Of a stretch of DNA of 64,000 nt, positions 59,575-63,176 are shown piece by piece. The DNA lies in the IMG/VR virus record IMGVR_UViG_3300042691_012617, positions 1 to 64,000 of that record, one strand, 5' to 3'. Source of the stretch: a virus. Numbering within the stretch: the first letter of the stretch is position 1; each line of letters starts with the position of its first letter. A program made the position numbers and the translations under genes. Under the pieces are notes generated by a model. That model did no database searches. It saw nothing but the letters and a program-made list of their open reading frames with translations, and was not told where the DNA came from.

Positions 59575-60282
59575 ATGTCACTCGCAGGAATTATCGCTTC
59601 AACGCCAAAACACCAAACAACTCTTCCCGTCAGCGGAAAGAAGATCGAATACCGACCCTTCATCGTCAAGGAAGAGAAGATCCTTCTCATGGCGGCTGAG
59701 AGCAAGGACGAGAAGACAATCAACACAGCCATCCGCGATGTGATCTCCGCATGCACAGGCGGGGCTGTGGATGTCTTCAAGTTGCCATTGGTAGACATGG
59801 AGTATTTGTTCCTGCAACTCCGCAGCCAATCCGTTGGTGAGACTGCCAAGCCAAATGTCAAGTGTTCAAAGTGTGAACTCCCGACTGAGGTTGAGATCAA
59901 CCTGAAGGAGATTCAACCGATCACCGATCCAAACCATAAGAAGATCATCCCTGTTGTCGGGGATATCAGCGTGGTCATGAAGTATCCCACAGTCGATGAC
60001 CTGAAGGATATTGACTCGCAGAGTGACATTGAAAAGGCACTCACCCTGTTGGTCAAGTCAATCGACAAGGTCTATCAGGGTGAGAAGATCTTCAATGCCT
60101 CGGAAATGGATCCCAAGGAAGTTCGTGGATTCATCGAAGAGATGACGCAGGAACAGTTCAAGAAACTCTTCTCCTTCGTGGAAACGATGCCCAAGTTGGA
60201 GAAGCAAGTTCAATTCAAGTGCAAGCATTGTGGTCATGAGAACAACTCGACTCTGAGGGGGATCACAAGTTTTTTCTCCTAG
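59575..60282 (+). CDS. gp26: gp26-like baseplate hub/tail assembly protein
   Basis: 235 residues. TTLPVSGKKIEYRPFIVKEE followed by KILLMAAESKDEKTINTAIRD and LPLVDMEYLFLQLRSQSVGE is the T4_baseplate (gp26) family. Two zinc-knuckle pairs are visible: C97-x2-C100 and C216-x2-C219-G-H. It sits directly before the tape measure gene. Its last codons contain T-TTT-TTC (60270-60276), a canonical -1 slippery heptamer; a slip would replace the last residue and add 64 codons. That is the layout of tail assembly chaperones, so the hub label may be incomplete. Confidence 0.85.
   Translation: MSLAGIIASTPKHQTTLPVSGKKIEYRPFIVKEEKILLMAAESKDEKTINTAIRDVISACTGGAVDVFKLPLVDMEYLFLQLRSQSVGETAKPNVKCSKCELPTEVEINLKEIQPITDPNHKKIIPVVGDISVVMKYPTVDDLKDIDSQSDIEKALTLLVKSIDKVYQGEKIFNASEMDPKEVRGFIEEMTQEQFKKLFSFVETMPKLEKQVQFKCKHCGHENNSTLRGITSFFS
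60270..60276 (+). promoter_or_regulatory. Predicted -1 ribosomal frameshift site
   Basis: T TTT TTC in the gp26 frame, one codon before the TAG at 60280. A -1 shift enters a frame open from 60240 to 60470. GAGGGGG about ten bases upstream could act as an internal Shine-Dalgarno stimulator. Confidence 0.7.
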
Positions 60283-60470
60283 CCTCCACCCATGACAACT
60301 TGTTCAACATGCTCTCTGTGAACTTTGCGATGATGCAAAACTTCAACTACACGCTAGTTGATCTAGAGAGCATGATGCCATGGGAGCGGAGGGTTTATAT
60401 CGATTTGCTGATGCAACACTTGAAGGAAGAGAAGGAGCGAATGGAGTCTTTGAAGAGCCAAAGACAGTAA
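60276..60470 (+). CDS. -1 frame extension of gp26 (tail chaperone-like)
   Basis: About 64 codons after the shift: LLASTHDNLFNMLSVNFAMM, then QNFNYTLVDLESMMPWERRV and YIDLLMQHLKEEKERMES. The MMPWER-x-YxxLLxxHLxEE pattern recurs next to gp26 in T4-likes. The frame has no ATG with a ribosome site: the first ATG (60309) falls inside the conserved part and lacks one. The gp26 fusion would be about 298 residues. This matches the G-GT type product needed to fold the tape measure protein, the next gene. If the site is not used, the segment would need an internal start. Confidence 0.6.
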   Translation, partial: LLASTHDNLFNMLSVNFAMMQNFNYTLVDLESMMPWERRVYIDLLMQHLKEEKERMESLKSQRQ

Positions 60471-60482
60471 AGGGACAGATAG

Positions 60483-63176
60483 ATGGCTGAACCAACACAA
60501 GGCAATCCCACACCACCGAACAACCAAGACGGTATTACACCACCTATGTCGAATGATGTTGCAACCAAAGCATTCGATAAGTTTTTCGCTGAGATGGAAG
60601 ACTTGAAGAAGACCATCGAAGGCTCCAAGAAAATCCTTGAGACACAAAAGAAACTTCAGGCGGATCTGAACAAAGCATCCCTCATTGAGCAGAAAGCGCG
60701 AAACGCTGTCACAGAGGGAATGAAGAAACTGGACAAGGAAAACGAAAAGTATAGAGACAAACAAGGAAATTGGCTAGCAGAGACAGAAGCGATGCAAGCC
60801 AAGTATGCCGCCGACATGGAAGAACTCCACAAGGCGCACCTAGAGACCGAAGATAGTTTCTTCAAGGCATCTGATGCGTTGATGGAAAACACAAAAGCCA
60901 TGGGGCAGATGAAGGACGCGACACAGTCTGCGCTGTTTGGTTTGCGCGATCTTCGTGACATGGTGCGTGAGTTTGATCCCGAAGTGGCGGCAGGATTGAG
61001 CAAGGCATATGGCGAAGCCGCCAATCTTGTGGTTAAATCTAACAAGGATTTTGATGCCGCCAATTCTGAAATTGCAAGGACATCGGGCGAAGAACTTGAA
61101 AAGGCGTTGGGCGAAATGGCAGATGGTCTGCGTAAAGCAAACAACGCAGAGATGCACGAAGAAGCAATCAAGGCTCAAGAGAAGATATTTGATGCTCAAA
61201 AAGAATTTGCAGAACAAACCAAGAAACTCGCTGATGAGATGTCAACTACCGAAATTGCCCAAGAACTTGGTGCAGGCGGTGGCGTTGTCGGGTTGAGAGA
61301 TATCAAAGCAGAGGTAGATGACCTTAGTGGTCTCACCGACAAAGCAGTCGCTCTCTACAAGGCAAAGAACAAAGAGGCGACTGACAGCGATGTCAAGAAG
61401 TATAAGGAAGAGTTCATCTATCAGCAGAAGTCTTTGATTCAGCAGAGACTTGAGCAAAAGTTCAACAAGGAAATTGATGAGCAGAGAAACAAGCGAATCC
61501 TGAAGATCATGGAGGAGAAAAAAGTCTCCAAGGATGTCGCGGCAAAGATCGACAGCGGAAGCAAAGAAGGCAAGCAGGCCGATGCTGACATGATCAAGCG
61601 GCACGAAGACACAATGAAGGGCTTCGAAAGCCTCAATGCCACTCAACTTGCGATGCTAGAGAATGCCAAGGACAGCGACATGAAGTTGGCTGAAAGGGAA
61701 GCAGAAGCAGCCAATGACTATCCGCCTTGGGCACAACCACTCATAGATGGAATTGCTAGTCTAAAGGACACAATGGGTGGCATGTTCAAGAAAGAGGACG
61801 GGTGGTTTAAGACCATCCTCCTAATTTTGTCCGTGACTATAGGGGCAGTTCTAGGATACATCTTCTACAAAGTGATGTTCATCTTTAACATCGTCAAGGG
61901 TATCTTTGGCTTGCTCACGCACCTTCCATTTGGAATTGGCAAAGCAATTGGGGGAATATTTGCAAAACTCGGCGGTGTTGGTGGCGGTATTGCAAAAATG
62001 TTTAGCGGCGTTGGAAGTAAGTTGGGTCTTTTCGGAGAAGGGATTGCCAAGGTTTTTCCATTCATTGGACGATTGGGAACCGCTTTCAAATTTGGCTTCC
62101 AAATCCTAGGAAAGGCATTCTTCTACATCCAACTTGTAGTAGATGCCATCTTTGGTGCATACAAGGGTTTCCAACAGTTGGGCAATATCAAAGGTTTGAT
62201 CATGGGTGCAATCGCTCAGATCATCAGCGGGCTTACATTTGGACTGCTCGACTTCCAAAGCATCTTCGATTTCTTCAACACAACCATGAGCGGTGTATTC
62301 GATGGAATCGCGGGTGTGTTTGAACCAATCGTTGAGTTTTTCGGAAAGGCATATGACAACTTGACGAATGCCTTCTCGCGTGTGATGGCAGTTTTTCAAG
62401 GAGAGGGGTCTATCTTCACCAAGATATTCAAAGTCATTCAGATCGGCATCACAACAACAGTCAAGAACCTCGTCGCGTTCATAGGAGCGGCAATAAAGAC
62501 TGTTTTCAATGCTGTTGTTGTATTGCCTTTCAAGATTGGTGAGTTTATCGGTGAGATGCTTGTCAAGTTGGCAGAATTGACATATGACGCTTTTGTATCT
62601 CTGTGGGATTGGATCTCTAGTGGTCGAATCTTGGCAGATGTCGCAAACTTTGGTACTTGGCTTTATGACGAACTAATCGGATTCTTCGCAGGAATCATCA
62701 ATGCAATCGCTGACGGCTTGGGTGAAATCCCAATCGTTGGTGGCTACATCAAGGAAGCATTGGGCGGCGGTGCGGGTGGAGATGGTCTACAGACTGCGGT
62801 TGAGAAGAGTGCTGAAGTTGTAAAAGAGGCACAGCAAAGCGCAGACACTATGGCGACAAACGCTACCACACCAACTCAAAGTAGTGCCGTGCAGTTTGTA
62901 AACACTCCTATAACGCCGATTGCAACTCCAAGCGGTAAAGTACAATTTGCTGCTCCCTCTTATAATGCTAATACTGTCAATACGGCAACGATGAACACAG
63001 CAACAGCAAGAATGGAAGCCACAAACCAAGGTGGCACCGCTGTCATCAACACCCCGACTACAAACAATGTCATGAGTGGCGGTGGTGGCGAGAGCAATGT
63101 GCTGATGCCGACAAACAACAGAAACACGGAACCGACATTCCGCGCCCTGCTGTTTCAGGATTGTCCTGCCCTATAA
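60483..63176 (+). CDS. gp29: Tape measure protein
   Basis: 897 residues, ribosome site GGGACAG near the ATG. Residues about 20-420 are charged coiled coil (KILETQKKLQADLNKASL, then IEQKARNAVTEGMKKL). From about residue 443 it has hydrophobic, possibly membrane-inserting helices (TILLILSVTIGAVLGYIFYK and more), Gly-rich turns, then a polar, Thr/Asn-rich tail ending RALLFQDCPAL. Length, composition and position after the gp26 pair mark it as the tail length ruler (T4 gp29, 590 residues). At about 0.15 nm per residue, a tail near 130 nm would be expected. Confidence 0.85.
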   Translation: MAEPTQGNPTPPNNQDGITPPMSNDVATKAFDKFFAEMEDLKKTIEGSKKILETQKKLQADLNKASLIEQKARNAVTEGMKKLDKENEKYRDKQGNWLAETEAMQAKYAADMEELHKAHLETEDSFFKASDALMENTKAMGQMKDATQSALFGLRDLRDMVREFDPEVAAGLSKAYGEAANLVVKSNKDFDAANSEIARTSGEELEKALGEMADGLRKANNAEMHEEAIKAQEKIFDAQKEFAEQTKKLADEMSTTEIAQELGAGGGVVGLRDIKAEVDDLSGLTDKAVALYKAKNKEATDSDVKKYKEEFIYQQKSLIQQRLEQKFNKEIDEQRNKRILKIMEEKKVSKDVAAKIDSGSKEGKQADADMIKRHEDTMKGFESLNATQLAMLENAKDSDMKLAEREAEAANDYPPWAQPLIDGIASLKDTMGGMFKKEDGWFKTILLILSVTIGAVLGYIFYKVMFIFNIVKGIFGLLTHLPFGIGKAIGGIFAKLGGVGGGIAKMFSGVGSKLGLFGEGIAKVFPFIGRLGTAFKFGFQILGKAFFYIQLVVDAIFGAYKGFQQLGNIKGLIMGAIAQIISGLTFGLLDFQSIFDFFNTTMSGVFDGIAGVFEPIVEFFGKAYDNLTNAFSRVMAVFQGEGSIFTKIFKVIQIGITTTVKNLVAFIGAAIKTVFNAVVVLPFKIGEFIGEMLVKLAELTYDAFVSLWDWISSGRILADVANFGTWLYDELIGFFAGIINAIADGLGEIPIVGGYIKEALGGGAGGDGLQTAVEKSAEVVKEAQQSADTMATNATTPTQSSAVQFVNTPITPIATPSGKVQFAAPSYNANTVNTATMNTATARMEATNQGGTAVINTPTTNNVMSGGGGESNVLMPTNNRNTEPTFRALLFQDCPAL

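What the first reader, a model, noticed from the sequence alone, without database searches (positions are those of the whole stretch)
60240..60470. Programmed -1 frameshift at the end of gp26, just before the tape measure gene
gp26 ends with ...AGT TTT TTC TCC TAG. T TTT TTC at 60270-60276 is a textbook slippery heptamer. A -1 slip enters a frame open from 60240 to 60470 that encodes a conserved-looking domain (LESMMPWERRVYIDLLMQHL), with no plausible own start: its first ATG (60309) has no ribosome site and cuts into the domain. Long-tailed phages commonly make their tail assembly chaperone as a short and a -1-extended form directly upstream of the tape measure gene, as in lambda G/GT. This would assign that role to the gp26 pair in a T4-like phage, where gp26 is usually called a baseplate hub protein.
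Basis: partly seen in the sequence, partly recalled or inferred. Interest (0 to 1): 0.87.

Follow-up and report, generated by a model that had tools for sequence, protein, structure and literature searches.

The report
Frameshifted tail chaperone gene, T4-like phage
A T4-like virus of bacteria very probably makes a short and a long form of one tail-building helper protein by having ribosomes slip back one base near the end of the gene; this trick is already described for other T4-like phages, so the finding is sound but mostly expected.

Summary
gp26 (59575-60282) ends AGT TTT TTC TCC TAG, with U_UUU_UUC (60270-60276) in register; a -1 slip enters a frame open to 60470, giving a 298-residue fusion. 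The extension is the C-terminal domain known as T4 gp51. All 73 IMG/VR relatives with a complete gp26 end, and 41 of 45 protein clusters overall, keep an in-register T6 run there, against codon bias, with the extension under purifying selection and no conserved start codon. T4-type phages lack the run and use two genes: gp26 (short form) and gp51 (gp26-like domain fused in frame to the same extension). I add an internal Shine-Dalgarno-like element 8-10 nt upstream of the heptamer, whose codon choice exceeds amino-acid constraint at this site only (z about -8). This fits a tail assembly chaperone made in short and frameshifted long forms, like lambda G/GT. It is not new in kind: two papers I could read cite Vladimirov, Gautam and Davidson (Virology 2022) for T4-like tail chaperone genes, poly-T frameshift signals and the two-gene alternative. 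I did not find the SD element, or the different junction in Ackermannviridae, described. No expression data were available.

The parts
59575..60282 (+). gp26 ORF, short chaperone form (TAC-N), 235 aa, stop TAG 60280-60282
   Evidence: PF12322 E 7.5e-60; phrog_150 E 2.6e-59; AlphaFold2 model pLDDT 87.6
60255..60261 (+). Candidate internal Shine-Dalgarno-like stimulator GAGGGGG, 8 nt before the heptamer (its GAGGG core 10 nt before)
   Evidence: Anti-SD pairing -11.2 kcal/mol, synonymous-recoding p 0.005; family-wide z -7.8 at this site and about 0 elsewhere in the gene. Function inferred.
60270..60276 (+). Slippery heptamer T_TTT_TTC
   Evidence: In register; conserved in 73/73 IMG/VR relatives and 41/45 clusters
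60270..60470 (+). -1 frame extension, gp51-like C-terminal domain (TAC-C), 66 codons plus stop TAA 60468-60470
   Evidence: phrog_634 E 3.6e-20 and C-terminus of phrog_150 E 8.6e-7; homologs in 565 phage records; dN/dS 0.07 or less
60483..63176 (+). Probable tape measure protein gene, 897 aa, the next gene downstream
   Evidence: phrog_1272 tail length tape measure protein E 6.7e-6

Best explanation
The gp26-gp51 locus encodes one tail assembly chaperone in two forms. Most ribosomes stop at TAG 60280 and make short gp26 (TAC-N, 235 aa). A minority slip -1 on U_UUU_UUC, probably helped by an internal Shine-Dalgarno-like GAGGGGG 8-10 nt upstream, and make the 298-aa gp26-gp51 fusion (TAC-NC). 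By analogy with lambda gpG/gpGT, the common domain would bind the tape measure protein encoded just downstream and the extension would recruit tail or hub subunits. Shown here by sequence evidence: the shift site, the conserved -1 extension, the absence of a conserved start, and the two-gene equivalent in T4. Inferred: that slippage occurs, its rate, the stimulator's action, and the chaperone partners.
For: In-register T6 run in 73/73 IMG/VR relatives and 41/45 clusters against codon bias. Extension under purifying selection, homologous to gp51, with no conserved start and in 9 of 41 clusters a -1 frame stop directly before the heptamer. T4 gp51 is a gp26-like domain plus the extension, and the two-gene phages lack the T6 run. 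SD-like element specific to the site. Tape measure gene directly downstream. T4 gp26 and gp51 act in hub assembly, gp51 being absent from the particle (PMC3004832). Same reading cited for T4-like TACs in PMC10885494 and PMC12846349.
Against: No protein or reporter data. No significant structural match of gp26 to a solved tail chaperone (HK97 2ob9 only E 1.1). No downstream RNA structure. Part of the lineage independence is shared descent. In four divergent groups the gp26 homolog keeps the -1 extension but lacks the heptamer.
Confidence: 0.88

Rival explanations
1. The extension is a separate small gene 51, started at TTG 60300 or ATG 60309 by coupling to the end of gp26. This is how public cyanophage records annotate it.
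For: Database records give gp51 its own start downstream of gp26. Some vibriophages and Ackermannviridae have a TAATG stop-start overlap in the -1 frame.
Against: No start codon is conserved at one position; most lineages outside the window clade have no ATG before codon 21, although the residues upstream of it are conserved. The T6 run and its codon choice would be unexplained. In T4 the extension exists only fused behind a gp26-like domain.
Confidence: 0.05
2. Transcriptional slippage on the T run adds a base to part of the mRNA, so the fusion is made by ordinary translation.
For: The site is always a run of T. Slippage on runs of 9 A or T is known in bacteria (PMC5009743).
Against: Runs are 6 long in 30 of 41 clusters, 7 in 9 and 8 in 2, never 9; they keep tRNA register; and the upstream SD-like element acts on ribosomes, not on polymerase.
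Confidence: 0.04
3. A sequencing error or a broken gene: gp26-gp51 was one reading frame and lost a base.
For: Homopolymer runs are common error sites; one record (S-SCSM1, L086) does look shifted after the heptamer.
Against: The same arrangement occurs in 73 contigs and across many named phages, and the zero-frame stop is kept within a few codons downstream in nearly all.
Confidence: 0.01

Closest known systems
Tail assembly chaperones of T4-like phages (Vladimirov, Gautam and Davidson 2022, read only through PMC10885494 and PMC12846349)
   Same: gp26-type TAC-N with a poly-T -1 shift site and a TAC-C extension; T4 uses two genes instead
   Different: This phage belongs to an uncultivated clade; the internal SD-like element is my addition and I could not check whether that paper mentions it
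Lambda G/GT
   Same: Short form plus rarer -1 extended form, encoded directly upstream of the tape measure gene, shift near the end of the first ORF
   Different: No detectable sequence homology; different slippery heptamer; contractile-tailed T4-like phage
T4 genes 26 and 51
   Same: gp26 equals the short form; gp51 equals the whole fusion (gp26-like domain plus extension)
   Different: Two separate genes, divergent in T4 and tandem in RB43; no T6 run
E. coli dnaX -1 frameshift
   Same: Internal 5' Shine-Dalgarno stimulator upstream of an X XXY YYZ heptamer
   Different: dnaX also needs a downstream stem-loop, not seen here, and makes the shorter product by shifting
Vandenendeviridae/Andersonviridae TAC locus with GTTTTT (PMC12846349)
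   Same: Conserved T-rich -1 shift site at the end of TAC-N, -1 frame always open
   Different: Different phage families; homology of the proteins to gp26 not tested here

Membership tests
gp26 family (PF12322 / phrog_150) | Profile match above the curated cut-off over the full domain | tested here: met
   202.8 bits against cut-off 24.5, profile positions 2-218 of 219
gp51 family (phrog_634) | Profile match of the C-terminal domain | tested here: met
   E 3.6e-20 over residues 11-74 of the -1 frame
Phage tail assembly chaperone pair (G/GT type) | In-register slippery site near the end of the short form, leading into a conserved -1 extension | tested here: met
Phage tail assembly chaperone pair (G/GT type) | Position directly upstream of the tape measure gene | tested here: met
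   60483-63176, phrog_1272 E 6.7e-6
Phage tail assembly chaperone pair (G/GT type) | Fold similarity to a solved tail chaperone | tested here: inconclusive
   HK97 2ob9 rank 4, E 1.1, probability 0.13, TM by target 0.33-0.40
Phage tail assembly chaperone pair (G/GT type) | Both forms produced in a fixed ratio, absent from the virion, binding the tape measure and tube proteins | not testable with these tools
   Needs expression and interaction data; for T4, gp51 is required but absent from the particle (PMC3004832)
SD-stimulated -1 frameshift cassette (dnaX-like) | 5' Shine-Dalgarno element about 10 nt before the heptamer | tested here: met
   Spacing 8-10 nt; codon choice beyond amino-acid constraint; stimulation itself not tested
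SD-stimulated -1 frameshift cassette (dnaX-like) | 3' stem-loop stimulator | tested here: not met
   Fold z-scores -1.1 to +1.0 in the window and relatives

The most novel reading that the evidence does not exclude
The gp26-family frameshift is driven by an internal Shine-Dalgarno element at dnaX-like spacing with no downstream RNA structure. The cassette has diversified within the family: T6 plus SD in most lineages, a distinct TTTC-type site or stop-start overlap in Ackermannviridae and relatives, and duplication into two genes in the T4 group.
Probability: 0.5. Interest if true: 0.45.

Novelty: new member of a known kind. Interest (0 to 1): 0.32.

Why it matters
It extends a known tail-chaperone frameshift to an uncultivated T4-like clade and shows with many lineages that the T run is selected, not accidental. 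Cyanophage records annotate gp51 as a separate gene with an arbitrary start; these should probably be joined coding sequences. The internal SD-like element is a specific, cheap-to-test prediction about how the short-to-long ratio is set.

Tried and rejected
A downstream RNA stem-loop stimulator was tested on the window and five relatives: folding energies were unremarkable (z from -1.1 to +1.0), and there was no Rfam hit. A solved structure found by sequence for gp26: none significant. Own-start initiation of the extension: no conserved start codon. Transcriptional slippage: runs too short and in fixed register. The internal SD as a by-product of conserved residues: rejected by a synonymous-codon randomisation with slid-window controls and a two-gene control; the two-gene control has only 8 genes and shows a small, non-significant shift (z -1.0). 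The 2022 Virology paper itself is not held, so its detailed content could not be checked. A vibriophage query for more Ackermannviridae-like loci returned none.

Full report
What is there. gp26 (59575-60282, 235 aa) matches PF12322 at E 7.5e-60 and ends AGT TTT TTC TCC TAG. T TTT TTC at 60270-60276 is in the register needed for tandem -1 slippage of tRNA-Phe. The -1 frame runs to TAA 60468-60470 and would give a 298-residue fusion. The 66-residue extension matches phrog_634 (gp51, 'baseplate hub assembly catalyst') at E 3.6e-20 and the C-terminal end of phrog_150 at 8.6e-7, so some members of the gp26 family already carry it fused. The next gene, 60483-63176, matches a tape measure family.

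Is it more than chance? A search of IMG/VR with gp26 gave 79 loci. In all 73 with a complete gp26 3' end (30-100% identity) an in-register TTTTTTC or TTTTTTT lies 7-16 nt before the stop, and the -1 frame continues into a homologous domain (one contig, L043, ends inside the extension). Among 16 named phages from outside that set, 12 have the run, including cyanophages, Pelagibacter phage Mosig, Methylophilales phage Melnitz, Sinorhizobium phiM7, Rhizobium, Ochrobactrum and Acidovorax phages and KVP40-type vibriophages. After clustering at 85% protein identity, 41 of 45 clusters have it. Under each gene's own codon usage, TTT at the first Phe and a T-ending codon before it each have a probability near 10^-12.6, on the assumption that clusters are independent. 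The window's own gp26 uses TTC 9 times and TTT never elsewhere.

The extension is a real coding region. dN/dS against seven relatives is 0.07 or less, while the other two frames of the same DNA, where defined, give 0.8 or more. Nine of 41 clusters have a stop in the -1 frame directly upstream of the heptamer, and many have no ATG before codon 21 of the extension, although the block before it (FFxIALxHxxLxNYxxxNF) is conserved. The window's ATG 60309 is shared consistently only within its own clade. That leaves frameshifting as the route to the conserved N-terminal part of the extension.

The natural control. In T4, 44RR, Klebsiella, Acinetobacter, Krischvirus, Proteus, Kosakonia and RB43 phages gp26 has no T6 run at its end. 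Several still carry Lys-Glu-Phe-Phe near the end but write the two Phe as TTC TTT. These phages have a second gene, 51. T4 gp51 matches PF12322 over residues 1-201 (E 3.9e-52), and its remaining residues match the extension profiles, so gp51 corresponds to the whole fusion, not just to the extension. Gene order differs: divergent in T4, tandem in RB43. A maximum-likelihood tree puts all 16 two-gene copies on one side of a branch (99/97) from the 45 single-gene copies. This fits one duplication that replaced the frameshift, though the tree is unrooted and several branches are long.

A candidate stimulator. Most frameshifting lineages have a purine-rich GAGG/GGAGG/AAGG element ending 8-10 nt before the heptamer; in the window it is GAGGGGG, 60255-60261. 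The conserved residues there (Leu-[Glu/Arg/Lys]-Gly) would produce part of this, so I compared each site with synonymous recodings drawn from the gene's own usage. The observed pairing to the anti-SD is stronger: mean -6.8 against -4.7 kcal/mol, Fisher p 4e-7, and for the window -11.2 against -4.6, p 0.005. With the same test slid to ten other positions in the gene, z lies between -0.4 and +2.1, against -7.8 at the site. Eight two-gene gp26 ends give z -1.0. The 5' Shine-Dalgarno as a stimulator of -1 shifting is established for E. coli dnaX (PMC5009743). No ATG, GTG or TTG sits at initiation distance after the element in the window. I found no downstream structure. That the element stimulates slippage is inference.

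What it does. By anatomy (short and long form from one gene, next to the tape measure gene) it works like lambda G/GT, whose mechanism is summarised in PMC5009743. T4 gp26 and gp51 are listed as hub assembly chaperones, and gp51 is required but absent from the particle (PMC3004832). The predicted gp26 fold is confident (pLDDT 87.6) but resembles a solved tail chaperone only weakly (HK97 2ob9, E 1.1). Viral structure matches are to gp26 relatives in diverse phages. Membership in the chaperone class therefore rests on anatomy and published genetics, not on fold.

What was known. PMC10885494 states, citing Vladimirov, Gautam and Davidson 2022, that some T4-like phages carry one short and one fused long tail chaperone gene instead of frameshifting. 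PMC12846349, citing the same paper, refers to poly-T -1 frameshift signals in TAC-N genes of T4-like phages. The original is not held here; from memory, its abstract names T4 genes 26 and 51 and says frameshifting is kept in several T4-like groups. The finding is therefore a new member of a known kind. Cyanophage records still annotate gp51 as an independent gene.

Limits. Nothing here measures slippage. Clusters are related by descent, so the probabilities are optimistic. The SD analysis uses one anti-SD sequence, and the host of this phage is unknown.

Noticed in passing
L096 2180-2400, L106-L119, L121-L124, L099, L095, L091 (Ackermannviridae and relatives): gp26 homologs lack the T6 heptamer, yet the -1 frame extension (FHLIFEIDLLSYF...MPWHLD) overlaps the gp26 end at a conserved xTT TTC Axx TAA junction; Kuttervirus has no ATG, GTG or TTG in that frame before the conserved part, others have TAATG. 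A different shift site or reinitiation is likely.
   Followed up: partly
L097 1501-2794 (phage RB43): gp51 and gp26 lie in tandem in the order 51-26, unlike the divergent T4 arrangement.
   Followed up: partly
L086 1799-1990 (Synechococcus phage S-SCSM1): The heptamer is present, but the extension sits in the +1 frame after it, unlike its close relative RB11-B: an indel, a sequencing error or decay.
   Followed up: no
L083 1103-1834 (Pelagibacter phage Mosig): The zero-frame stop begins 31 nt after the heptamer begins, the longest overlap seen, so the short form has a tail of eight residues after Phe-Phe.
   Followed up: no
L093 2182-2190 (Rhizobium phage RL38J1): The heptamer is T TTT TTG, a less usual slip site: zero-frame Leu, -1 frame Phe.
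   Followed up: no
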